A DNA stretch of 64,000 nucleotides from Nakamurella flavida. GTDB lineage: Bacteria; Actinomycetota; Actinomycetes; Mycobacteriales; Nakamurellaceae. Position 1 is the stretch's first letter. The number at the start of each line of letters is the position of its first letter. The DNA lies in the NCBI RefSeq assembly GCF_030811475.1, contig NZ_JAUSQV010000001.1, positions 434,001 through 498,000 of the forward strand. The letters run 5' to 3'. The notes below the pieces were generated by a model. The model worked only from the letters and a program-made list of their open reading frames with translations, had not been told where the DNA came from and did not search any database. A program made the translations under genes and the position numbers. Of this stretch, positions 51,996 through 64,000 are shown in pieces.

Positions 51996-52145
51996 TCAGG
52001 AGGCCGCTCCGGTCGCCGGGAGGAACGATCGGTCGTCGTCGCCGCGGTGCGCCGCAGCCGATCGCCGGGGGCGGGCCAGCAAAGCGGCGAACCCGCACAG
52101 CACGACCAGGAAACCCACCACGAGAACCACGGCGTACTCGGCCAT
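51996..52145 (-). CDS. Small single-helix membrane protein
   Basis: 49 residues from ATG 52145, with a GGAG-like site about 9 nt upstream. One hydrophobic helix (about 4-24, YAVVLVVGFLVVLCGFAALL) is followed by a basic segment and a polar tail. No family recognised. The longer frame around it is a shadow, but this short piece has the residue pattern of a real membrane peptide. Confidence 0.5.
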   Translation of the reverse strand: MAEYAVVLVVGFLVVLCGFAALLARPRRSAAAHRGDDDRSFLPATGAAS

Positions 52146-52309
52146 GACGGACTCCGTCCGGGACGGGGCGGGGCGCTGTGCCCCGCGTCTGTCATCAGTG
52201 GACTCGCGGCCGATGGGAGCGGACGGAACAGCGTGGGCGAGACATCGGGGCAAGGGCTGCCAGCGGGATGGGAACGTCCTGGCACCCCGCTGTGCGGCGT
52301 CGACGGTGC

Positions 52310-52651
52310 TCAGCCCCGGGTGATCCGCCGGAGTTGGGCCAGGGCGTACTGACGGGCCCGGCGTTGCCCGCCGCGCCGGTCGATGGCCTCCAGCAGGGCG
52401 TGCAGCTGGCGGGCCAGGGCGTCCCGGTCGGGGGTGCGACCCAGTTGTTCGCACTGCGTCGCCCAGTCGGTCGGCGACCGGTGGCCCCGCTGCCCGTTGC
52501 ACCGGGGGCAGGCGGCGACCTCGTTCTCCAACCAGGAGGGGCCGCCCTTGACCCGCGGCACCAGGTGGTCGGTGGTCGGCCGGGTCAGTCGTCCGAACGG
52601 TGTTGCGCACCAGCAGCACCGGTCCCCGTCGCGGAGCAGGATCAGATCCAT
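52310..52651 (-). CDS. HNH endonuclease-family protein
   Basis: 113 residues. CCWC and CPRC knuckles flank TTDHLVPRVKGG, whose His and following Asn (WLENEVAACPRCN) are the HNH catalytic core. Nicks or cuts DNA; many small actinobacterial HNH proteins are of unknown role. ATG 52651. No intron, intein or mobile-element borders were seen. The C-terminal half is Arg/Gln-rich and helical. Confidence 0.88.
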   Translation of the reverse strand: MDLILLRDGDRCCWCATPFGRLTRPTTDHLVPRVKGGPSWLENEVAACPRCNGQRGHRSPTDWATQCEQLGRTPDRDALARQLHALLEAIDRRGGQRRARQYALAQLRRITRG

Positions 52652-52698
52652 CCGGTCACGGCGCGGTCGCCCGTCGCCGAGTCCGGTGGGCGGGCCGG

Positions 52699-53262
52699 TC
52701 AGGGCAGCAACGCCCGGAGCAGGCGGTGGAGTTCGAGCCGGTCCGCCTCGGGCAGGGCGGCGAAGAACCGGTCGGCCTCCGCTGCCCGGGCCTCGCCGAT
52801 GGCCGCCCCGGCGGCGTGACCGGCCGGGGTCACCGTGACGAGAACGGCCCGGCGGTCGGTCGGGTCGGGCCCGCGGGCCACCAGTCCGCGGTCGGCCAGG
52901 GCGTCGACGACCTCGGTGGCCGAGCGCGGGGCGATGCGCAGATCGGCCGACAGATCGCTGAGCCGGATGCTTCCCCGGCGCAGGAGCACCACCAGTGCCC
53001 GGGCCTGGGCCGGGGTGATCTCCCAGGGTGCGGTCGTCTCCCGGAAGGTCTCACGCAGGCGACGGGCGACGGACCAGAACGCATCCGGCAGGGACTCGCC
53101 TGCGTGCCGGTGATCGTGTCCCGGCGCGACCGTACGGGCAGGGTCCTGCGCGGCCGGAGCCGCCGGCGCGACCGGAGGGGTGGGTGCCGTCGGTGCGGAT
53201 GCCCCGGACACGGCGGGCGGTGCCGCCGGCGCGGGCTGCGCGGACGATGGAGTGGGGAGCAC
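52699..53262 (-). CDS. MarR-family regulator, divergent from the ABC exporter
   Basis: 187 residues. An Ala/Pro-rich leader (about 1-50) precedes the winged helix (about 60-165, LSDLSADLRIAPRSATEVVDALADRGLVARGPDPTDRRAVLVTVTPAG). GTG 53262 follows TAGGAT by 6 nt (leaderless). It is divergent from an ABC exporter with interlocking palindromes between. MarR control of an efflux pump is the usual arrangement. Confidence 0.9.
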   Translation of the reverse strand: MLPTPSSAQPAPAAPPAVSGASAPTAPTPPVAPAAPAAQDPARTVAPGHDHRHAGESLPDAFWSVARRLRETFRETTAPWEITPAQARALVVLLRRGSIRLSDLSADLRIAPRSATEVVDALADRGLVARGPDPTDRRAVLVTVTPAGHAAGAAIGEARAAEADRFFAALPEADRLELHRLLRALLP

Positions 53263-53293
53263 GGGAACATCCTAGCCGCATGTTGTGTTGCAG

Positions 53294-53313
53294 CCTCATG
53301 ATGAGGTAACCTC
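53294..53313. promoter_or_regulatory. Interlocking palindromes and exporter promoter
   Basis: CCTCATGATGAGG (53294-53306) is a perfect 13-bp palindrome; GAGGTAACCTC (53303-53313) is a perfect 11-bp one sharing its last four bases. For the exporter, -35 TTGTGT (53283-53288) and -10 TAACCT (53307-53312) are 18 bp apart, so the operator fills the spacer and covers the -10. A bound MarR protein would block it. The MarR gene's own TAGGAT box (minus strand, 53269-53274) lies 20 bp away and could be controlled as well. Confidence 0.7.
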
Positions 53314-53471
53314 AGGTTGTTGGGTCGGCCCGGATCGGATCGCTGTTCCGTCCTCGAGAGCGGCACCATCGCCGCCGTCGATCCCCTCCTGTCTCCGCCC
53401 CGTCCCTCACACCCGTTCCAGGGCCGAGGCTCCCGTTCCGGTGAGCCCGCCCCCTTCCTCCTGGAGGACCC

Positions 53472-55430
53472 ATGGTGTTCATCCACTCCCCGAGCCGCCC
53501 CGGCTCGTCCCCGTCCCGTTCCACCGACCTGCCGGGCAGCGCACCGGTCGGCTCCCCGTCGATTGACCCGCCGATCGTCGGCCCGTCCGGTCGGCCCGTG
53601 CCCGTCGGCGCGGGTGTGCCGACCGACCTCCCGGACGAGCCCGGAGCCTCCGGCCGAGGCGGACGGGGTGGCGGCCGGGTCAGCGCCGAGGAACGCGCGC
53701 AGGCCCGGTCGGTGTCCTGGCGACGCATCGCCGGCCTGTTCACCGATCACCGGTGGCCGCTGATCACCGTCCTGGTCATCATCGTCATCTCGTCGGTCGT
53801 CGCGATGGCGTCCCCGTTCCTGCTGCGTGCCGTCATCGACGAGGCCCTGCCCGACCGCGATGTCGGACTGCTCGTGTGGCTGGTGGCCGGCATGCTCGGG
53901 GTCGCGGCCGTCACCGCCGTGCTGGGTGTGCTGCAGACCTGGATCAGCACCACCGTCGGCCAGCGCGTCATGCACACGTTGCGCTCCGGAGTGTTCACCC
54001 ACCTGCAGCGGCAGTCGATGGCCTTCTTCACCCGCACCCGGACCGGCGAGGTGCAGTCCCGCATCACGAACGACATCGGCGGCATGCAGTCGGTGGTCAC
54101 CTCCACGGCCACCTCGGTGGCCTCCAACCTGACCACCTCGGTCGCGACCGCCGTGGCCATGGCCGCCCTGAGCTGGCGGCTGTCCCTCATCTCGCTCGTC
54201 GTCATGCCGCCCGCCATCGCGCTCACTCGCACGGTCGGTCGGATGCGCCGGGAGATCACCGCCCGCCGACAGCGCGAGCTGGCCGACCTCACGGTGACCA
54301 TCGACGAGGGGCTGTCCATCGGCGGGGTGCAGCTGAGCAAGACCATGGCCACCGGACCGGCTCTGGCGCAACGGTTCTCCGACTCCTCCCGCCGACTGAT
54401 CGACCTGGAGCTCCGCTCGGAGCTGGCCGGCCGGTGGCGGATGGCCACCATGAGCGTGCTCTTCGCGGCGATCCCCGCGGTGATCTACCTCGGGGCCGGG
54501 CTGCCGGCCACCTCCGGCGGGATGTCCATCGGCACCCTGGTCGCCTTCACCGCCCTGCAGGCCGGGCTGTTCCGCCCGCTGATGGGGCTGCTCAACGTGG
54601 GCGTCTCGCTGACCAGTTCGCTGGCCCTGTTCGCCCGCATCTTCGAGTACCTGGACCTCCCGGTGGAGATCGCCGAACCCGAGCACCCGGCCGCGCTGGA
54701 CCTCGGCGGGGTGCGCGGACACATCCGCCTGGAGGACGTCACCTTCGCCTACGAGGGCAGCGGGACGGCCGCGGTGGCCGGCGTCAGCCTGGACGTCCCG
54801 GCCGGCACCACGCTGGCCCTGGTCGGTGAGACCGGTTCGGGCAAGAGCACGCTGGCGGCCCTGCTGGCCCGGTTGCAGGACCCGACCGGTGGGCGGATCA
54901 CCCTGGACGGGGTCGACCTGCGGGACATGGCCCTGGCCGACCTGGCCGCGGTCGTCGGCGTGGTGAGCCAGGAGACCTATCTGATGCACACCAGCGTCCG
55001 GGAGAACCTGCGCTACGCCCGGCCCGACGCCACCGACGAGCAGATCGAACAGGCGGCCCGCTCGGCCCGCATCCACGACCTCATCGCGTCCCTGCCCGAC
55101 GGGTACGACACCATGGTCGGCTCCCGCGGGCACCGGTTCTCCGGCGGTGAGAAGCAGCGGATCGCGATCGCCCGCACGCTGCTGCGCGATCCCCGGGTCC
55201 TCGTCCTCGACGAGGCGACGAGTGCGCTGGACACGGAGACCGAGCGCGCCGTGCAGCAGGCGTTCGACGACCTGGCCCGCGGACGCACCACCATCACCAT
55301 CGCCCACCGGCTGTCCACCGTCCGCGACGCGGATCGGATCGCCGTGCTGGACCACGGTCGCGTCGTCGAGTCCGGGAGCCACGACGAGCTGGTCGCGGCC
55401 GGCGGCCGGTACGCCGCCCTGGCCCGCTGA
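53472..55430 (+). CDS. ABC exporter (fused membrane and ATPase domains)
   Basis: 652 residues, a half-transporter working as a dimer. A Pro/Gly/Ser-rich cytoplasmic leader (about 1-90) is followed by the six-helix ABC membrane domain (about 95-395), then the ATPase: Walker A GETGSGKS (about 453-460), signature FSGGEKQR, Walker B VLVLDEATSALD, and the AHRLSTV switch. It exports a drug, lipid or peptide. ATG 53472 with GGAGGA upstream. Controlled by the divergent MarR regulator. Confidence 0.95.
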   Translation: MVFIHSPSRPGSSPSRSTDLPGSAPVGSPSIDPPIVGPSGRPVPVGAGVPTDLPDEPGASGRGGRGGGRVSAEERAQARSVSWRRIAGLFTDHRWPLITVLVIIVISSVVAMASPFLLRAVIDEALPDRDVGLLVWLVAGMLGVAAVTAVLGVLQTWISTTVGQRVMHTLRSGVFTHLQRQSMAFFTRTRTGEVQSRITNDIGGMQSVVTSTATSVASNLTTSVATAVAMAALSWRLSLISLVVMPPAIALTRTVGRMRREITARRQRELADLTVTIDEGLSIGGVQLSKTMATGPALAQRFSDSSRRLIDLELRSELAGRWRMATMSVLFAAIPAVIYLGAGLPATSGGMSIGTLVAFTALQAGLFRPLMGLLNVGVSLTSSLALFARIFEYLDLPVEIAEPEHPAALDLGGVRGHIRLEDVTFAYEGSGTAAVAGVSLDVPAGTTLALVGETGSGKSTLAALLARLQDPTGGRITLDGVDLRDMALADLAAVVGVVSQETYLMHTSVRENLRYARPDATDEQIEQAARSARIHDLIASLPDGYDTMVGSRGHRFSGGEKQRIAIARTLLRDPRVLVLDEATSALDTETERAVQQAFDDLARGRTTITIAHRLSTVRDADRIAVLDHGRVVESGSHDELVAAGGRYAALAR

Positions 55431-55448
55431 CCGCTGCGCTGCAGGATC

Positions 55449-55481
55449 CCGCCCGACCCGGCCGTGCGCCGGGCCGGGCGG
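55449..55481. terminator. Hairpin between converging exporter and kinase
   Basis: CCGCCCGACCCGG (55449-55461) and CCGGGCCGGGCGG (55469-55481) pair with one mismatch, 19 nt past the exporter stop. Confidence 0.65.
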
Positions 55482-55525
55482 TGGTGTGCTCCCCGGCCGT
55501 CCGTCCGGCCAGGCGTGGCCGACGG

Positions 55526-56194
55526 TCAGCCGATGCGGACGACCAGATCGGCGCGGGGACGACTGCGGCGGATGCGCTCGGCGTTGACCTCGTCGGTGCC
55601 CGTCGCCCAGGCCAGCGCGTCCTCGGGGGACTTCCCGAAGGCGACGTGCCGATCGACCAGTCGCTGCAGGCGGACCTTGTCGTCGACCTCCAGGAACCAG
55701 ACCTCGTCCAGCAGCCCGTCCAGGGCGGCCTCCTCCTCGAGGAGGTAGTTGCCCTCGGTGAGGACGATGCGGACGTCCTGCGGCACGGCGACCGCCGAGG
55801 CGATGGGTTCCTCGATCTCCCGCAGGAAGGTCGGGGCGTAGACGACCGGTTCGTCGTTGGCCCGCAGTCGACGGATCAGCGCCCGGAAACCACCCAGGTC
55901 GAAGGTGTCGATGGCGCCCTTGCGGCCCCGGGTGCCGTTGGCCTCCAGCACGATGTTGGCCAGGTGGAACCCGTCGAACGGCACCACGACCATCGATTCG
56001 GTCAACACCCCGGCCAGCATCGTGGACAGGGTCGACTTCCCGGCGCCCGGCGTACCGGTCACCCCGATGATCACCCGGTCCCGATCCTCGAGCAGGCCGG
56101 CGATGCGCCGGGTGAGCGCGGCGAGATCGATGCCGCCCACCTCGACGACGGCGGGATCGGGCGGGGTGGTGGGCCTGGACTCCGGACCGGTCAT
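55526..56194 (-). CDS. P-loop sugar/nucleoside kinase, FrcK-like
   Basis: 222 residues. Walker A GTPGAGKS (47-54) and the downstream VVVPFDGFHLAN (acceptor-site Asp) and LTEGNYLL segments are those of the uridine-kinase-like family that includes FrcK, which accompanies frcBCA in rhizobia. It probably phosphorylates fructose or a related sugar imported by the linked transporter; uridine kinase remains possible. ATG 56194. Divergent from lacI across an operator, so co-regulated with the fructose locus. Confidence 0.82.
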   Translation of the reverse strand: MTGPESRPTTPPDPAVVEVGGIDLAALTRRIAGLLEDRDRVIIGVTGTPGAGKSTLSTMLAGVLTESMVVVPFDGFHLANIVLEANGTRGRKGAIDTFDLGGFRALIRRLRANDEPVVYAPTFLREIEEPIASAVAVPQDVRIVLTEGNYLLEEEAALDGLLDEVWFLEVDDKVRLQRLVDRHVAFGKSPEDALAWATGTDEVNAERIRRSRPRADLVVRIG

Positions 56195-56210
56195 CGGGAT
56201 GGATCCTTTC

Positions 56211-56245
56211 CTCGCAACAGTTTGCGCAACGTCTAGAATGCCGGG
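56211..56245. promoter_or_regulatory. Operator A and leaderless lacI promoter
   Basis: CTCGCAA-CAGT-TTGCGCA (56211-56228) is an 18-bp inverted repeat with the 7-4-7 layout of the sites at 60634, 60665, 63371 and 63415. TAGAAT (56234-56239) is 6 nt before the lacI ATG, so lacI is leaderless and the operator covers its -35. Seventeen bp on the other side starts the kinase gene. Confidence 0.8.
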
Positions 56246-57346
56246 ATGGGCGGAAGCAGACCCCGCCGGACGGCGTCGATGGCCGACATCGCCCGGGCGG
56301 CCGGGGTATCGGTGACAACGGTGTCACACGTGGTCAACAAGACACGGCCGGTGGCGATCGACACCGAGCGGGCTGTCCTCGCGGCGATCGCGGACCGAGG
56401 ATACGTCCCGGACAACGCATCCCGGTCCATGCGCTCGGCCGGGTCGCAGACCATCGGCCTGGCCATGTCCGTCCTGTCCAACCCCTACTTCACCGAACTG
56501 GTCAGTTCCATCGAGCAGGCCGTGTCCGGGGCCGGCTTCTCCCTGCTGCTCGCCGAGACCCACGACGACGCCGCGGAGGAGTTGCGCGCCGTGACGGAGC
56601 TGGTGGCGCGCAAGGTGGAGGCCGTCGTGCTGGCTCCGTCGGCCGATCCGTCGGCCGCGCTGGAGGTGGCCCGCCAGGCGGACATCCCCGTGCTCCTCAT
56701 CGACCGTTTCCTGGACGCCGATGTCGACCAGATCGCCTCGGAGAGCGTGGTTCCCACCGCGGAGCTGGTCGATCACCTCGCCGGGTCGGGGCACCGGCGC
56801 ATCGCCATGATCAGCGGGCTGGCCGGCCTGAGCACCACCGAGGAACGCATCGCCGGGTTCCGGCTCGGCATGCGCCGCCACCGCCTCCGGGTCGATCCCG
56901 AGCTGGTCGTCAGCGGCGAGTCCGACGGTGCACGCGCCGAGATCGTCATCCGGGAGCTGCTCGCCCTGCCCGAACCGCCCACGGCCGTCCTGGTCGGCAA
57001 CAACCAGATGACCATCGGCGTGATCCGCGGGGCGGGCCGGGCCGGGGTCGACGTGCCGGGGGATCTCGCGGTCGTCTCGTTCGACGACTTCGAGTGGGCC
57101 GATCTGTTCCACCCCCGGTTGACGGTGGTGGCGCAACCGGTGCAGGCCATGGGCCAGCAGGCGGTGTCGATGGTGATGTCCCGGCTGCGGGACCGGAGTC
57201 TGCCGGCCCGCCGTGTCGTGCTCCGGCCGACCTTCGTGCACCGCGACTCCTGCGGCTGCCACCGGGACTCGATCGTCGCTGTCGTCCCCACCGACGTCCC
57301 CCGGGCCATCGCCGACGCCCTGCCCAGTTCCACCGGCGCTGCCTGA
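56246..57346 (+). CDS. LacI-family repressor of the fructose locus
   Basis: 366 residues. The N-terminal HTH (about 12-32, MADIARAAGVSVTTVSHVVNKTRPV) is followed by the hinge and a periplasmic-binding-protein-like effector domain (IGLAMSVLSNPYFTELVSSIEQAV, VSFDDFEWADLFHPRLTVVAQP). It should bind a sugar or sugar phosphate. A C-terminal RDSCGCHRD motif and tail (about 330-366) extend beyond the usual end. Its 18-bp operator is repeated at all promoters of this locus. ATG is leaderless. Confidence 0.93.
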   Translation: MGGSRPRRTASMADIARAAGVSVTTVSHVVNKTRPVAIDTERAVLAAIADRGYVPDNASRSMRSAGSQTIGLAMSVLSNPYFTELVSSIEQAVSGAGFSLLLAETHDDAAEELRAVTELVARKVEAVVLAPSADPSAALEVARQADIPVLLIDRFLDADVDQIASESVVPTAELVDHLAGSGHRRIAMISGLAGLSTTEERIAGFRLGMRRHRLRVDPELVVSGESDGARAEIVIRELLALPEPPTAVLVGNNQMTIGVIRGAGRAGVDVPGDLAVVSFDDFEWADLFHPRLTVVAQPVQAMGQQAVSMVMSRLRDRSLPARRVVLRPTFVHRDSCGCHRDSIVAVVPTDVPRAIADALPSSTGAA

Positions 57347-57480
57347 CCTTCGTCGGGGCCCGACCCGGCGCGACGCAGGATGTCCCGGGATCCTGCCCCT
57401 GCCCGCCGCTCGGGCCCGACGACAGCAGAACGCCCGGCCCGACCCCCGATGCAGGGCGGACCGGGCGTTCTCCCGGGTGG

Positions 57481-57524
57481 CACAGGTGGTTCGGCCGTCG
57501 CTCAACGCGGCCGAACCACCTGTG
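57481..57524. terminator. Perfect 17-bp hairpin between lacI and frcA
   Basis: CACAGGTGGTTCGGCCG (57481-57497) pairs perfectly with CGGCCGAACCACCTGTG (57508-57524); 10-nt loop. It lies 5 nt before the frcA stop and serves both converging genes. Confidence 0.85.
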
Positions 57525-57529
57525 GCATC

Positions 57530-58399
57530 TCACTTGTCGTGGTACGAGCCCCAGGTGCAGGCACGGGCCGGGTCCATCGGGGTGGCGCCCGTCATGATGG
57601 CGACCGCCTCGGTGGGGGTGTGCGACTGCGGGGTGATGACGCCCGCGCGGCCGCCCAGGCGGGCGATGTGGATGCGGTCGGCCACCTCGAACACGTTGGG
57701 CATGTTGTGGCTGATCAGGATGACCGGCAGACCACGGGCCTTGATGGAGCGGATCAGGTTGAGCACCTGCCCGGTCTCCTTGACGCCGAGGGCCGCGGTC
57801 GGCTCGTCGAGCACCACGAACTTGGTGGCGAAGGTGGCCGCCCGGGCCACCGCGACCGCCTGGCGCTGCCCGCCGGAGAGGGTCTCCACGGACTGCGACA
57901 TGTTCTGGATGGTGCCGATGCCCAGATCGGACATCGACTTGCCGGCCGCCTTGTTCATGCCCTTCTTGTCCATCATGCGGAAGATGCTGCCGAGCGGGCC
58001 CGGCCGCAGGGTCTCCCGACCGAGGAACAGGTTGCTGGCGATGTCCAGCGCCGGGGCCACCGCGAGCGTCTGGTAGACGGTCTCGATGCCCGCGTGCCGG
58101 GCTTCCTGGGGGGACTTGAACGCGACGTGCTCGCCGTCCAACTGGATCTCGCCGGCGTCGGGGATGACGGCGCCGGTGAGGGCCTTGATGAGGGTCGACT
58201 TGCCGGCGCCGTTGTCGCCGATGATCGCGAGCACCTCGCCGGGGTACAGGTCCAGGTCGACGCCGTCGAGACCGACGACGCGGCCGAAGGTCTTGACCAG
58301 ACCCCGGGCGGAGAGCACGGGAGCGGCGTCGTAGTTCGGCTTGCCGAGTCCCTTCTGGGCGCCCGGGTTCTTCTCGGTGCTGGTGAGGGGAGTGCTCAT
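57530..58399 (-). CDS. frcA: Fructose-type ABC importer ATPase (FrcA-like)
   Basis: 289 residues, a single ATPase domain, unlike the fused double domains of RbsA/XylG. Walker A GDNGAGKS (61-68), the ETVYQTLAVAPALDI region, LSGGQRQAVAVARA and the VLDEPTAALGVKETGQV Walker B run are very close to FrcA of rhizobia, as is ISHNMPNVFEVADRIHI. Powers uptake of fructose, and in rhizobia also mannose and ribose. ATG 58399. Third gene of the pfkB-frcC-frcA operon. Confidence 0.92.
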   Translation of the reverse strand: MSTPLTSTEKNPGAQKGLGKPNYDAAPVLSARGLVKTFGRVVGLDGVDLDLYPGEVLAIIGDNGAGKSTLIKALTGAVIPDAGEIQLDGEHVAFKSPQEARHAGIETVYQTLAVAPALDIASNLFLGRETLRPGPLGSIFRMMDKKGMNKAAGKSMSDLGIGTIQNMSQSVETLSGGQRQAVAVARAATFATKFVVLDEPTAALGVKETGQVLNLIRSIKARGLPVILISHNMPNVFEVADRIHIARLGGRAGVITPQSHTPTEAVAIMTGATPMDPARACTWGSYHDK

Positions 58400-58401
58400 G
58401 G

Positions 58402-59435
<1,034 letters not shown>

Positions 59436-59439
<4 letters not shown>

Positions 59440-60521
59440 GGCATCGTCCTCTGGGGCAGTACCGCAGCGATGGTGGCACTGGGTGGGCGGGGAGCTGGTG
59501 CGGGTTCACGCTTGTCGGGACGACCGGCGTCGTCGAGATGGGGCCGTGGAATGGGATCAGGGTGGTCCGGTGGTGAGGCGGTCCCGGGGGAGGGACGGGG
59601 AGAGCGGTGGGGGAGGTCGGACAACCAGGCCCGGGCGCCGCGCCGCGCGCACCGCACCGCGGCCACCGACGCCGCCCCTCCGAGTCGATCGGTGAGGCAT
59701 GTGTCCTCCTGGGTGGCGAAGAAGCAGTAGGCACCGTGGAAGACGTCCCCCGCACCGAGCGTGTCCACCGCCGCGATCCGCGGGGGAACGATCTCCCCGT
59801 GCCGCCCACCCTCCCACCACAGGACCGCCTCCGCGCCCTGAGTGGTGATCACGATCCGGTTTCCGTCGGCGACCAGGCGCGCGGCGCTCTCCCGCACGTC
59901 GTGCGAACCGGGCACGCGGAAGTCGCCGGAGCAGATCACCGTGCCGGCCTGGGGGACGAGAGTGGCCATCTGCGGCTTCCAGCGACCGGCGTCGATGACC
60001 ACCGGTACACCGAGGCGGTTCGCGGTGCGGGCGGCCACGTCGGCCAGCGCGGGGTGGTGCCCGTCGATCAACAGGATGTCCGCCGGCCCGATCCACGGGG
60101 CCAGGTCCGGGATCTCGGCGAGGTCGAACCCGGTGGCGTCCATGCTGACGACGCTCCGATCGCCGTTGCCGCTGACGGTGATGGCGGACAGGGCGGGTTC
60201 GCTGTCCACCTCGGCGGACAGGTCGACGACCCGGACGCCGTACCGGTCGAGGTCGGCCCGGATGAGGTCCCCGACCGGGTGTCGACCGATCGCGGTGATC
60301 AGGACGGCGTCCCCGCCGAGCCCGGCGAAGGTGACGGCGGCGTTGGCGGCCGGACCACCGGCGGCGATGGAGGAGTCGGTCGCGGTGACCTTCTCGTTCG
60401 CACCGGGCGCGACGGGCAGGTAGTGGATGACGTCGAGCGTGGCCAGTCCGACGAACACGCCGACGGGTCGGGCGGCGGCGACGGAACTGTCCGGGCGGTG
60501 GGATGCGGTGCGTTCAGGCAC
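59436..60521 (-). CDS. PfkB-family carbohydrate kinase
   Basis: 361 residues from GTG 60521 (GTG 60533 also in frame). Ribokinase/PfkB fold: N-terminal GLATLDVIHYLP, PxxN-like AAGGPAANAAVTFAGLGG motif, and the C-terminal DTLGAGDVFHGAYCF signature with the catalytic Asp. It would phosphorylate the incoming sugar, such as fructose to fructose 1-phosphate. Residues about 300-361 form a Pro/Arg-rich tail that is not part of the fold and whose codons overlap the frcC leader. First gene of the pfkB-frcC-frcA operon. Confidence 0.88.
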
Positions 60522-60610
60522 GTTCCACCCCACTGCACACGTCAGGACCCTCCGCGACCGTGCGGCTCGCCCCACCGACGGCTGCGTCGGGTTCCGGAAC
60601 CGGTCCGCGA

Positions 60611-60640
60611 ACCATAGCCACCGGGAAAGGCGCTGCGCAA
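60611..60640 (-). promoter_or_regulatory. Promoter of the pfkB-frcC-frcA operon
   Basis: On the minus strand TTGCGC (60635-60640) and TATGGT (60611-60616) are 18 bp apart. The -35 is the right-hand arm of operator B1. The same TTGCGC/TATGGT pair drives frcB. Confidence 0.65.
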
Positions 60641-60682
60641 GGATTTGCGCACAGTCTCCGGCCGGCCGCAAAGGCTTGCGCA
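60634..60682. promoter_or_regulatory. Operators B1 and B2 between pfkB and fba
   Basis: B1 TGCGCAA-GGAT-TTGCGCA (60634-60651) has perfect 7-bp arms. B2 GCCGCAA-AGGC-TTGCGCA (60665-60682) has five of seven pairs. They start 31 bp apart, about three helical turns, so two LacI dimers could sit on one face. Both lie between the divergent promoters of pfkB-frcC-frcA and fba. Confidence 0.8.
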
Positions 60683-60687
60683 CGATG

Positions 60688-60716
60688 TTGCCAAGGTCGG
60701 GGGCGGTCCGTAGCTT
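60688..60716 (+). promoter_or_regulatory. Promoter of the class II aldolase gene
   Basis: TTGCCA (60688-60693) and TAGCTT (60711-60716) are 17 bp apart, 38 nt before the aldolase ATG. Operator B2 ends 5 bp upstream of the -35. Confidence 0.6.
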
Positions 60717-60753
60717 GCGGGGATCCCGTCCACCCTCCGACGCAAGGACTCCC

Positions 60754-61779
<1,026 letters not shown>

Positions 61780-61817
61780 CCCGCGGCCGACCGCCGGCCC
61801 GCCGCCCTGGCTCCACA

Positions 61818-61857
61818 CGAACGGCCCCGCCCGACGAGAGTCGGGCGGGGCCGTTCG
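61818..61857. terminator. Bidirectional terminator after the aldolase
   Basis: Perfect 18-bp stem (61818-61835 with 61840-61857) and GAGA loop between the converging fba and frcB genes. Confidence 0.9.
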
Positions 61858-61930
61858 GCGTTCGGCCTGCGTGGTGCTCGGATGCTCTCCGATGCGCGCC
61901 GCCGGTGAGGCGATGCGGGTGGAGCGGGGT

Positions 61931-61960
61931 GGGTCACCGGCGCCGGAGCGCCGGTGACCC
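61931..61960 (-). terminator. frcB terminator hairpin
   Basis: Perfect 13-bp stem GGGTCACCGGCGC / GCGCCGGTGACCC with a CGGA loop, 8 nt past the frcB stop. Confidence 0.75.
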
Positions 61961-61968
61961 GGGAGGGA

Positions 61969-63198
61969 TCAGCCCCAGCAGAGGTTGGTGCCCTCGGTGG
62001 TGTCGATGCTGTCCACGCCGTCGACCGGCTTGTCCGTCACCAGCGCGACGCCGGTGTCGTAGAAGTCCAGGCCCTCGGTCACGGCCGGCTTCTCGCCGCC
62101 ACGGGCGATGGTGACGATCGCGTTGACGCCGAGCTGGGCCATCAGCAGCGGGTACTGCTGCGAGGTGGCGCCGATGGTGCCGTTCTTGACGTTGGAGACG
62201 CCTTCGCAGCCACCGTCGACGGAGACGACGAGGGTGTCGGTCTTGCCGGCGGCCTGCAGCGCGCTGGCGGCACCGATGGCAGCCTGCTCGTTGATGGTGT
62301 AGACGACGTTGATGTCGGGGTTGGCGGCCAGGCAGTTCTCCATGGCCGTCTTGCCGCCGTCAGGGGTGGCCTGCGAGGCCTCCTGGCAGGCGATCTCGTA
62401 CTCGCCACCGTCGTACGAGCCGGTCTTGGCCTCGTCGCCCTTGACGGTCTTGTCGGCGACGTCGATGCCCATGCCGGACAGGAAGCCCTGGTCGCGGTTG
62501 ACGTCGACGGTCACGATCTTGTCGTTGAACGCGTCGAGCAGGGCGATGGTCGCCTTCTGGCCGGCCAGGGAGCCCTTGGCCCACTCGCCGACCAGGTTGC
62601 CGGCCGAGAAGTTGTCGGTGGCGAAGGTGATGTCGACCGTGTCGGCCGGGTCCGGCGGGGTGTCCAGCGCGATGACGAAGAGGCCGGCAGCGCGGGCCTT
62701 CTCGATCGCCGGGTTGACCGCGGGGCCGTTGGGGGTGATCAGGATGCCCTTGTCGCCGCGGGCGATGGACTGCTCGATCGCGTCGACCTGGCCCTGCTCG
62801 TCACCGTCGGCCTTGCCGGCGGCGATGGTGATGGTGACGCCGTTGAGCTCGCCGGCGGCCTTCTGGGCGCCTTCCTGCATGGCGATCCAGAACGGGTTGG
62901 TGGAGTCCTTGGTGATCAGGGTGACCGAGACCGGGTCGCCGTCCGGAACCGCGGCGCTGGAGGCGCTGGAGGAGCCGGCCGAACCGGAGGTGGCCGACCC
63001 GGAGGCGGCGCTGCTCGAGGCGGTCGCGCTGCTCACGGCGCTGCCGGCCGCGGAGGTCGCGGACGACACGGCGCTGCCGGCGGCGCTGGTGGCCGAGCTC
63101 GCCGTGTCGGAGGCGCCACCACAGGCGGAGAGCACCAGGGCGGAGGCGGCCACGAGGGCGAACGGGGCCGTCCACCGACGGAGGGAAGAGGTCTGCAT
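61969..63198 (-). CDS. frcB: Fructose-type ABC importer binding lipoprotein (FrcB-like)
   Basis: 409 residues. Lipobox LVLSAC gives Cys26; an Ala/Ser/Gly-rich linker fills about 28-84. The binding domain is strikingly like rhizobial FrcB: ITKDSTNPFWIAM, FATDNFSAGNLVGEWA, INVVYTINEQAA, VVSVDGGCEGVSNV, GATSQQYPLLMA and the terminal DTGVALVTDKPVDGVDSI block. It binds fructose (perhaps also mannose or ribose) outside the membrane. ATG 63198 with GGAG upstream. Transcribed alone, from an operator-bearing promoter. Confidence 0.94.
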   Translation of the reverse strand: MQTSSLRRWTAPFALVAASALVLSACGGASDTASSATSAAGSAVSSATSAAGSAVSSATASSSAASGSATSGSAGSSSASSAAVPDGDPVSVTLITKDSTNPFWIAMQEGAQKAAGELNGVTITIAAGKADGDEQGQVDAIEQSIARGDKGILITPNGPAVNPAIEKARAAGLFVIALDTPPDPADTVDITFATDNFSAGNLVGEWAKGSLAGQKATIALLDAFNDKIVTVDVNRDQGFLSGMGIDVADKTVKGDEAKTGSYDGGEYEIACQEASQATPDGGKTAMENCLAANPDINVVYTINEQAAIGAASALQAAGKTDTLVVSVDGGCEGVSNVKNGTIGATSQQYPLLMAQLGVNAIVTIARGGEKPAVTEGLDFYDTGVALVTDKPVDGVDSIDTTEGTNLCWG

Positions 63199-63348
63199 GT
63201 GTTCTCCGAGCACTCATCTGGTGCGCACTCACGCACCATTGCGGATGTCGATTCACCCTCGGTGACGCCGGGAACTGGACGGGGACGAGCCGGGCCGGAG
63301 CCCAGCTGATCACCGCGTTGTGGTCGCCGTCACGAAGACTGTGCGAGG

Positions 63349-63388
63349 ACCATAAGGCTGCCAACATGCTTGCGCAACCACTTGCGGT
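63349..63388. promoter_or_regulatory. Operator C1 and frcB promoter
   Basis: TGCGCAA-CCAC-TTGCGGT (63371-63388) has the 7-4-7 layout with five of seven pairs; TTGCGCAA (63370-63377) is itself a palindrome. On the minus strand TTGCGC (63372-63377) and TATGGT (63349-63354) are 17 bp apart: the frcB promoter, with the operator over its -35. Confidence 0.75.
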
Positions 63389-63414
63389 AACGCTTCGGAC
63401 TCGGTCTCCTGTGC

Positions 63415-63432
63415 CGCGCAAATCATTGCGCG
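63415..63432. promoter_or_regulatory. Operator C2 before the zinc dehydrogenase
   Basis: CGCGCAA-ATCA-TTGCGCG is a perfect 18-bp inverted repeat in the 400-bp divergent region between frcB and the dehydrogenase, 44 bp from C1. It is the best-formed site of the five. It probably controls the dehydrogenase; that gene's -10 was not clear. Confidence 0.8.
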
Positions 63433-63598
63433 AACCCTTGCCCTGTGGGACGCTCGCCGGGCCCGGATCACCGTCGACGCGGCGGCGATCCAGGTCCGCC
63501 GCGCACGGGCCCGCTCTCTCACCAGCCCCCTCGCGCGCGGCCCGGTGTCAGCGCAGACGTGTTGTCACCTCCCGTCGTCCCACGGAGGTTCCCACCCC

Positions 63599-64000
63599 AT
63601 GACAGCAGCCACCTCGGTCGTCGCAGGCGAGACCCTGCCGAGCAGCATGCGCGCCAGCGTCCTGACCGGCGCGTTGAAGATCTCGATGGACGAGCGCGCC
63701 GTTCCCACCCCCGCGCTGCATCAGGTCCTGGTCCACGTCTCGAAGGTCGGTGTCTGCGGGTCGGACATCCACTACTACCGCGAGGGCCGGGTCGGCCCCT
63801 TCGTCGTGGACGCGCCGCTGGTCCTGGGGCACGAGCTGTCCGGCCGGATCGTCGCCGTCGGCGAGGGCGTGGACACCTCCCGGATCGGCGAGCGTGTCGC
63901 CGTGGAGCCGCAGAAGCCGTGCCGGCTGTGCAGCCAGTGCAAGGCCGGCCGCTACAACCTGTGCCCGTTCATGGAGTTCTACGCGACCCCGCCGATCGAC
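63599..64000 (+). CDS. Zinc-dependent sorbitol/polyol dehydrogenase (3' end outside window)
   Basis: 134 residues present of an expected 340-360. Catalytic-zinc Cys53 (GVCGSD), His78-Glu79 (LGHE) and four structural-zinc cysteines (108, 111, 114, 122) are intact. The HYYREG segment and CPFMEFYATPPID are close to sorbitol/L-iditol dehydrogenases, which oxidise polyols to ketoses such as fructose. ATG 63599 with GGAGG 10 nt upstream. Divergent from frcB with operator C2 upstream. Confidence 0.88.
   Translation, partial: MTAATSVVAGETLPSSMRASVLTGALKISMDERAVPTPALHQVLVHVSKVGVCGSDIHYYREGRVGPFVVDAPLVLGHELSGRIVAVGEGVDTSRIGERVAVEPQKPCRLCSQCKAGRYNLCPFMEFYATPPID

What the first reader, a model, noticed from the sequence alone, without database searches (positions are those of the whole stretch)
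55526..64000. Self-contained fructose/polyol locus under one LacI regulator with five copies of one operator
Kinase, lacI, frcA, frcC, pfkB, class II aldolase, frcB and a sorbitol-type dehydrogenase form six transcription units. Three intergenic regions carry YGCGCAA-N4-TTGCGCR sites at 56211, 60634, 60665, 63371 and 63415, so all six units have a site at or beside the promoter. FrcB/FrcA closely resemble the rhizobial fructose importer, yet here they are rearranged with a dedicated aldolase and two candidate kinases. A route polyol to fructose to fructose 1-phosphate to trioses is implied.
Basis: partly seen in the sequence, partly recalled or inferred. Interest (0 to 1): 0.78.

Follow-up and report, generated by a model that had tools for sequence, protein, structure and literature searches.

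The report
Fructose/polyol regulon with CpG-less LacI operators
A bacterium's fructose and sugar-alcohol genes appear to share one local switch, and the DNA sites for that switch lack the central letters that most switches of this family read, while the matching part of the switch protein is eroded too.

Summary
The five sites are real. Only two fit the 18-bp consensus as written, but all five match CGCAA-N4-TTGCG exactly, and five of the six exact copies in the 4.32 Mb genome lie here. They sit in three divergent intergenic regions serving six gene units: frcK, lacI1, pfkB-frcC-frcA, a second type-IIA FBP aldolase, frcB, and an MDR-SDR dehydrogenase pair. A local fructose/polyol regulon is well supported. 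A same-order genome carries the same set (frcB-C-A-pfkB-frcK-lacI-aldolase, aldolase 78% identical) as one run behind CpG-centred sites, so the window's version is a broken-up, enlarged cassette. "One LacI" is incomplete: a second LacI (55% identical) lies 1.5 kb past the window. The fructose-1-phosphate route is not shown.

The unexpected part is the operator centre. Among counted sites of LacI relatives outside this LacI's clade, 79 of 84 have a central CpG; inside, 1 of 15. The hinge is altered in the same clade: Met replaces the lever Leu here, and LacI2 has a deletion. This is about one evolutionary event, hence a correlation. CpG-less centres, and joint loss of hinge Leu and CpG, are already reported for a minority of LacI regulators: a new variant of a known kind.

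The parts
55526..56194 (-). frcK-like P-loop kinase (NCBIfam NF006743 nucleoside/nucleotide kinase family)
   Evidence: 250.7 bits against cut-off 227; nearest solved chain 3c8u, named fructokinase by its depositors
56211..56228 (.). operator 1, CTCGCAACAGTTTGCGCA, between frcK and lacI1
   Evidence: exact CGCAA-N4-TTGCG core; one mismatch to the 18-bp consensus
56246..57346 (+). lacI1: LacI/GalR-family repressor, recognition helix SVTTVSH, Met62 at the hinge-lever position
57530..58399 (-). frcA-type single ATP-binding subunit
   Evidence: 84% identical to the Propionibacteriaceae copy in L051
58402..59439 (-). frcC-type permease (PF02653)
59436..60521 (-). PfkB-family sugar kinase with a proline-rich C-terminal tail; first gene of the pfkB-frcC-frcA unit (GTG start assumed)
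   Evidence: PF00294 97 bits; 55% identical copies lie in frc operons of two same-genus genomes, 52% in L192
60634..60651 (.). operator 2, TGCGCAAGGATTTGCGCA
   Evidence: exact 18-bp match
60665..60682 (.). operator 3, GCCGCAAAGGCTTGCGCA; 31 bp from operator 2, about three helical turns
   Evidence: exact core; two mismatches to the 18-bp consensus
60754..61779 (+). class II type-IIA fructose-bisphosphate aldolase, an extra copy
   Evidence: TIGR01520 360 bits against cut-off 347.7; NF006628 429 against 297; 78% identical to the aldolase of the L192 frc run
61969..63198 (-). frcB-type sugar-binding lipoprotein (PF13407)
63371..63388 (.). operator 4, TGCGCAACCACTTGCGGT
   Evidence: exact core; two mismatches to the 18-bp consensus
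63415..63432 (.). operator 5, CGCGCAAATCATTGCGCG; 44 bp from operator 4
   Evidence: exact 18-bp match
63599..64000 (+). sorbitol/polyol-type MDR dehydrogenase; the gene continues past the window end, followed by an SDR and, on the other strand, lacI2 (window-equivalent 64651-65409 and 65519-66544)
57478..57527 (.). inverted repeat between the convergent lacI1 and frcA ends, possible terminator without a T-run
   Evidence: 20-nt arms, 95% complementary; not among the terminator-like sites
61818..61857 (.). inverted repeat between the convergent aldolase and frcB ends, possible terminator without a T-run
   Evidence: 18-nt arms, 100% complementary; not among the terminator-like sites

Best explanation
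This is a local fructose/polyol uptake and catabolism regulon. LacI1 (and perhaps its paralogue LacI2, which has almost the same recognition helix) represses six units from three divergent regions by binding paired TTGCG half-sites four bases apart. The inducer, probably a ketose or ketose phosphate, releases it. FrcBCA imports fructose and possibly sorbitol/mannitol; the MDR and SDR enzymes oxidise polyols to ketose; the PfkB kinase phosphorylates it; FrcK supports uptake or metabolism by an unknown reaction; the extra type-IIA aldolase drains fructose 1,6-bisphosphate to trioses. Unlike most LacI relatives, this clade would read mainly the two major-groove half-sites: its operators lack the central CpG, and the hinge that normally inserts a leucine there is altered. 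Shown by sequence: sites, genes, genome-wide specificity of the core, recurrence of the gene set, clade-level absence of the CpG together with hinge changes. Inferred: binding, repression, inducer, substrates, kinase chemistry, LacI2's role.
For: Five of six exact core sites in the genome lie here. The same seven genes frcB-C-A-pfkB-frcK-lacI-aldolase form one run in a same-order genome, with the aldolase 78% identical and two CpG-centred sites in front of frcB. Half-sites and spacing recur near LacI homologues across actinobacteria and in four Pseudomonas sugar-ABC loci. Of five same-genus loci, two carry frcBCA-pfkB-frcK and two frcBCA, each beside a LacI and sites of this kind. MDR, SDR, FrcK and LacI recur together in Mycolicibacterium locus L064 (MDR and SDR both 58% identical). 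No PF02378 PTS EIIC. Centre: 1 of 15 clade sites has CpG against 79 of 84 sites in 56 loci outside. On a tree built without the hinge columns these proteins group together (12 rows at SH-aLRT 83, below the tool's 95 mark; 13 with L052 at 96). Hinge: Met62 aligns with PurR Leu54, and LacI2, L070 and L072 have two-residue hinge gaps. LacI1's hinge (59-65) is modelled with pLDDT under 50, and no hinge helix of four or more residues is modelled for L072.
Against: No binding, expression or growth data. CpG absence and hinge change trace to about one event (1-2 independent pairs, sign test p = 1), so causation is not established. Four Streptomyces members keep the ARAL hinge motif yet lack the CpG, and three of them share one identical site. 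L051 has one CpG-centred one-mismatch site of two. Outgroup L052 has a third, uncounted one-mismatch site without CpG. No CpG-type relative was folded as control. Four places elsewhere match the 18-bp consensus with one mismatch. PfkB, FrcK, MDR and SDR substrates are unknown; FrcB and FrcC pass no NCBIfam cut-off, nor does LacI1, nor FrcA among the 25 best of its 192 families. The promoter scan found none.
Confidence: 0.65

Rival explanations
1. Ordinary LacI regulon: the degenerate centre is drift with no mechanistic meaning, and LacI1 still kinks DNA through Met62 as the PurR L54M mutant does.
For: [quoted passage not shown] Streptomyces members keep the hinge motif but lack CpG.
Against: Hinge gaps in LacI2, L070 and L072 and the RAA hinge in L054 are not conservative; 1 of 15 against 79 of 84 is a sharp clade difference.
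Confidence: 0.35
2. Two repressors divide the locus: LacI2 binds some or all five sites with a different inducer, so fructose and polyol signals are read separately.
For: LacI2 is next to the MDR-SDR unit; HTH regions are 31 of 41 identical against 148 of 274 in the core; recognition helices are SVTTVSH and SITTVSH.
Against: No exact CGCAA-N4-TTGCG site lies in front of lacI2; its hinge has a gap, which may leave it unable to bind alone.
Confidence: 0.25
3. The true substrate is another ketose or hexitol (for example galactitol/tagatose or sorbose), with fructose only a by-product of annotation.
For: The SDR's best solved relatives are a putative polyol dehydrogenase and galactitol dehydrogenase; FrcB's curated family scores are weak and ribose-like.
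Against: The aldolase passes the type-IIA FBP cut-offs, whereas tagatose models score far below theirs.
Confidence: 0.2

Closest known systems
Sinorhizobium meliloti frc locus (frcB, frcCAK, frcRS, with frk nearby; PMC10433430, passages)
   Same: FrcB/FrcC/FrcA importer, FrcK-type P-loop kinase, a separate sugar kinase, link to sorbitol and mannitol growth
   Different: Here the genes are split into six units under LacI-type sites with a private FBP aldolase and two dehydrogenases. Identity to the S. meliloti frc proteins themselves was not measured; FrcA is up to 68% identical to Sinorhizobium replicon sequences
frcB-C-A-pfkB-frcK-lacI-aldolase run of a same-order genome (L192, unnamed)
   Same: Same seven genes, aldolase 78% identical, same half-sites and spacing
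   Different: One run on one strand, CpG-centred tandem sites, LacI 46% identical with an intact ARSL hinge (row L158), no MDR or SDR match within the 18 kb read (threshold 1e-10)
LacI regulators with a central-CpG even palindrome (1173 of 1251 even-palindrome TFs; Ravcheev 2014, PMC4052901, passages)
   Same: LacI/GalR fold, even palindrome, local sugar regulon
   Different: No central CpG and no shared centre in the five sites; that paper counts 49 TFs with another centre and 29 with a degenerate one, so this is the rare class
EbgR-like LacI regulators (Francke 2008, PMC2329647, passages)
   Same: Conserved hinge Ala/Leu and the operator's central CG missing together
   Different: EbgR-like operators have a single central C or G and the proteins an insertion before helix 3; here the spacing stays even (N4) and the change arises inside an otherwise CpG-using group
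CytR (PMC3454398, passages)
   Same: Half-sites read without a fixed central element
   Different: CytR spacing varies widely and it works with CRP; here the spacing is four at all five sites
E. coli PurR
   Same: TTVSH in the recognition helix (alignment); half-site CGCAA (the PurR operator is recalled, not from a call)
   Different: PurR has Leu54 and a central CpG (recalled); here Met and no CpG

Membership tests
LacI/GalR transcription factors | N-terminal LacI HTH plus periplasmic-binding-like core | tested here: met
   PF00356 48.4 bits (cut-off 27), PF13377 131 bits (cut-off 26.5)
CpG-using LacI subgroup | hinge helix with Ala and lever Leu | tested here: not met
   LacI1 SRSM, LacI2 gap; low-confidence hinge in the LacI1 model
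CpG-using LacI subgroup | CG at the dyad of an even palindrome | tested here: not met
   0 of 5 sites here; 1 of 15 in the clade; 79 of 84 outside
EbgR-like LacI regulators | operator with a single central C/G | tested here: not met
   all five sites have an even N4 spacer
Frc-type fructose ABC importer | single-domain ATPase with FrcB/FrcC partners (single domain as the Frc mark is recalled) | tested here: met
   289-aa ATPase, permease and binding protein, conserved as a set in relatives
Frc-type fructose ABC importer | transport of fructose | not testable with these tools
   no assay; no NCBIfam cut-off passed by FrcB or FrcC
Type-IIA FBP aldolase | score over curated cut-off | tested here: met
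   360 against 347.7 and 429 against 297 bits
1-phosphofructokinase (FruK) | score over curated cut-off for the PfkB protein | tested here: not met
   24.6 against 292 bits
Fructokinase (PfkB type, NF006957) | score over curated cut-off | tested here: not met
   49.5 against 450 bits
FrcK / PRK09270-type kinase | score over curated cut-off | tested here: met
   250.7 against 227 bits
Sorbitol/polyol MDR dehydrogenase | score over a curated cut-off | tested here: inconclusive
   none of 22 NCBIfam models passed; closest solved chains are ketose reductase and sorbitol dehydrogenase

The most novel reading that the evidence does not exclude
A LacI subfamily has dispensed with hinge-helix insertion and central-CpG reading: its dimers recognise two fixed-spaced major-groove half-sites only, transmit the sugar signal without a DNA-induced hinge helix, and in this genome two such paralogues share one operator set.
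Probability: 0.25. Interest if true: 0.68.

Novelty: new variant of a known kind. Interest (0 to 1): 0.48.

Why it matters
In structural work on LacI proteins the hinge-helix leucine inserts into the central CG of the operator and bends it (PMC2978694, passages), and the sugar signal is thought to act through that hinge (recalled). A natural group that keeps the half-sites and spacing while lacking both partners of that contact would test directly whether the contact is needed for repression and allostery. Matched CpG-type frc loci in the same genus and order supply the comparison. For annotation, the result ties FrcK, a PfkB kinase and an FBP aldolase to the frc importer as one recurring set.

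Tried and rejected
One-mismatch genome scan with the 18-bp consensus is no better than composition (7 places, 8 for the reversed control), so I used the exact core. The sixth exact core site has a GGCC centre and lies upstream of a gene that I read as CpaE/pilus-like (label from my reading, not from a family search); I treat it as chance. Searching 61 genomes (own and relatives) with the bare core pattern is uninformative: 56 of 61 have fewer exact copies than the reversed control. Hinge state against CpG as an independent-pairs test has too few independent changes. Promoter scan: none. Rfam over 52000-64000 at gathering thresholds: none. That the lever residue alone explains the CpG loss is rejected: Streptomyces members keep ARAL. 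That clade sites compensate outward is only suggestive: A at outer position 2 in 0.77 of 26 half-sites against 0.37 of 76, not corrected for ancestry.

What the CpG counts leave out: of 106 distinct LacI homologues (118 before removing identical cores), 62 had a site by my rule and 44 had none. Two exact sites farther away (L059, L116; neither with CpG) were outside the distance rule. One-mismatch sites seen but not counted because they are not upstream of lacI: two in Pseudonocardia oroxyli L047/L174 (centres CGGT, ATCG), one in L055 (TAGC), one in L052 (TGGA), none with CpG at the dyad; also uncounted are two in L192 (both GCGT, with CpG). The tree used 90 of 108 rows: L187 and 17 of 19 similar rhizobial rows were left out; L187's one non-CpG site is in the 84-site count.

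Papers: FrcB with LacI gave nothing; frcBCA/fructose/actinobacteria listed nothing on topic among the 10 shown; some searches gave the precedents cited. I claim no absence from print beyond these searches.
Full report
Observation. The eight-gene layout in the window was confirmed with coordinates. The 18-bp consensus fits exactly at two of the five places; the others have one or two mismatches. Four places elsewhere in the genome have one mismatch to it; each lies within long open frames, genes not identified. The shared core CGCAA-N4-TTGCG is exact at all five, and the complete 4.32 Mb genome has six exact copies, five of them here, with eight for the reversed control pattern. Five in 8.5 kb has p between 2e-12 and 8e-12. 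The sites lie in three divergent regions: frcK/lacI1, pfkB/aldolase and frcB/dehydrogenase. The two convergent ends hold inverted repeats at 57478-57527 and 61818-61857; the terminator scan, which asks for a T-run, did not list them.

Extension. Past the window end the dehydrogenase gene is complete and is followed directly by an SDR; on the opposite strand lies a second LacI, 55% identical to the first over 337 positions. The genome's next LacI relative in the list is 45% identical. The MDR is closest among solved structures to ketose reductase and sorbitol dehydrogenase, the SDR to a putative polyol dehydrogenase and galactitol dehydrogenase; by curated families neither substrate is decided.

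Comparative context. Around LacI homologues, frcB, frcC, frcA and frcK recur in Streptomyces (L048-L050, L053), Pseudonocardia (L047), Cellulomonas and Actinotalea (L086, L095 with pfkB; L082, L089 without) and others. I took the flanks of the LacI-homologue locus in five same-genus genomes: G009 and G012 have contiguous frcB-C-A-pfkB-frcK beside a LacI; G001 and G005 have frcBCA; G015 has frcC/frcA-like genes with frcK. The aldolase had no match (E up to 1e-15) in the 110 loci, but it does in L158 of the later set. The 18 kb around it (L192, same order, unnamed) hold frcB, frcC, frcA, pfkB, frcK, lacI and aldolase in one run on one strand; identities are 45, 51, 61, 52, 51, 46 and 78%. Two sites, one exact and one with one mismatch and both GCGT-centred, lie upstream of frcB there. 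So the window's version is a rearranged and enlarged form of a recurring cassette. Within the genome the aldolase is a second type-IIA enzyme, 60% identical to the other. The genome has seven PF01116 matches, seventeen PfkB matches (some look like pieces of one gene) and two PFK matches, and no PF02378 PTS EIIC match (the control rings in 7 of 14 known genomes).

Operator centre and hinge. I searched each relative with a pattern blind to the four central bases (118 loci, 106 after removing identical protein cores). Sites were counted if they had at most one mismatch within 400 bp upstream of lacI, or were exact from 5 kb upstream to 500 bp downstream of its start. Outside the clade of the window's LacI, 79 of 84 sites in 56 loci have CG at the dyad; inside, 1 of 15 in seven loci, own five sites included (Fisher p 4e-12, not corrected for relatedness). 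With exact sites only it is 35 of 38 against 0 of 13. Three of the clade's sites are the same word in close Streptomyces relatives. A tree of 90 rows built without the hinge columns puts LacI1, LacI2, L047-L051, L053-L055, L070 and L072 together (SH-aLRT 83; with L052 96). Residues 59-62 are SRSM in LacI1, TRSL in L047, TRSM in L055, QRTL in L051, gap-RAA in L054, ARAL in the Streptomyces members; LacI2, L070 and L072 have a two-residue gap in this region. L052, the nearest outgroup, has ARSL and two counted CpG-centred sites, but also one uncounted site without CpG. Met62 aligns with PurR Leu54. AlphaFold2 models give pLDDT under 50 for LacI1 residues 59-65, with a short helix at 56-60, and no helix of four residues in the hinge of L072; no CpG-type control was folded. 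L096, outside the clade, also has a broken hinge but no site by my rule. L182 has Val at the lever and CpG in two of three sites.

Reading. The most economical account is a local repressor-controlled fructose/polyol regulon whose repressor lineage has relaxed the dyad contact. Published work (passages read: PMC4052901; PMC2978694; PMC2329647; PMC3454398) already says that most LacI operators carry a central CG contacted by the hinge Leu, that a minority have another or a degenerate centre, and that EbgR-like proteins lack both. What is added here is a clade nested among CpG-using relatives, with the same half-sites and even spacing, in which the CpG is absent and the hinge is changing, with two such paralogues at one locus. 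Because this is about one event on the tree, it is a hypothesis with a clear bench test.

Metabolism. Import by FrcBCA, polyol oxidation by MDR/SDR, phosphorylation by the PfkB protein and cleavage by a type-IIA aldolase are inferred. Work on S. meliloti (PMC10433430, passages) reports that a frcK insertion lowers growth on fructose, sorbitol and mannitol and cuts fructose uptake by about half, that plasmid-borne frk but not frcK restores growth, that Frk is the fructokinase, and that the FrcK substrate is open. Nothing here decides between fructose 6-phosphate and fructose 1-phosphate.

Noticed in passing
L006:3519-4544 (window-equivalent 65519-66544): Second LacI with a two-residue gap in the hinge; upstream DNA holds a GTACGCGCGTAC palindrome and no exact CGCAA-N4-TTGCG operator.
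   Followed up: partly
L192:7793-14342: Same-order genome with frcB-C-A-pfkB-frcK-lacI-aldolase in one run behind CpG-centred tandem sites.
   Followed up: partly
L070:5355-5390 and L072:9950-9985: Two hinge-gapped LacI relatives (Micrococcales MAG, Nostocoides) have no N4 operator by my rule but share GCGAAAC(A/G)GTTGCGCAACG just upstream of the gene, perhaps a differently spaced operator.
   Followed up: partly
L054:9941-9978, L058, L178, L181, L182: Several relatives carry overlapping operators at 12-bp steps that share TTGCGCAA between neighbours.
   Followed up: no
window 62950-63110: FrcB carries a long Ser/Ala-rich, partly repeated linker after its lipobox-like start.
   Followed up: no
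window 59440-59620: The PfkB protein has a proline-rich C-terminal tail of about 60 residues beyond the kinase domain.
   Followed up: no
L064:10001-17385: Mycolicibacterium komossense locus with LacI, MDR (58%), a two-domain sugar ABC, FrcK and SDR (58%): FrcK is not tied to the Frc transporter.
   Followed up: partly
G000:C1:3803648 and 826847: Two PfkB genes pass the IolC (5-dehydro-2-deoxygluconokinase) cut-off, suggesting duplicated inositol catabolism.
   Followed up: no
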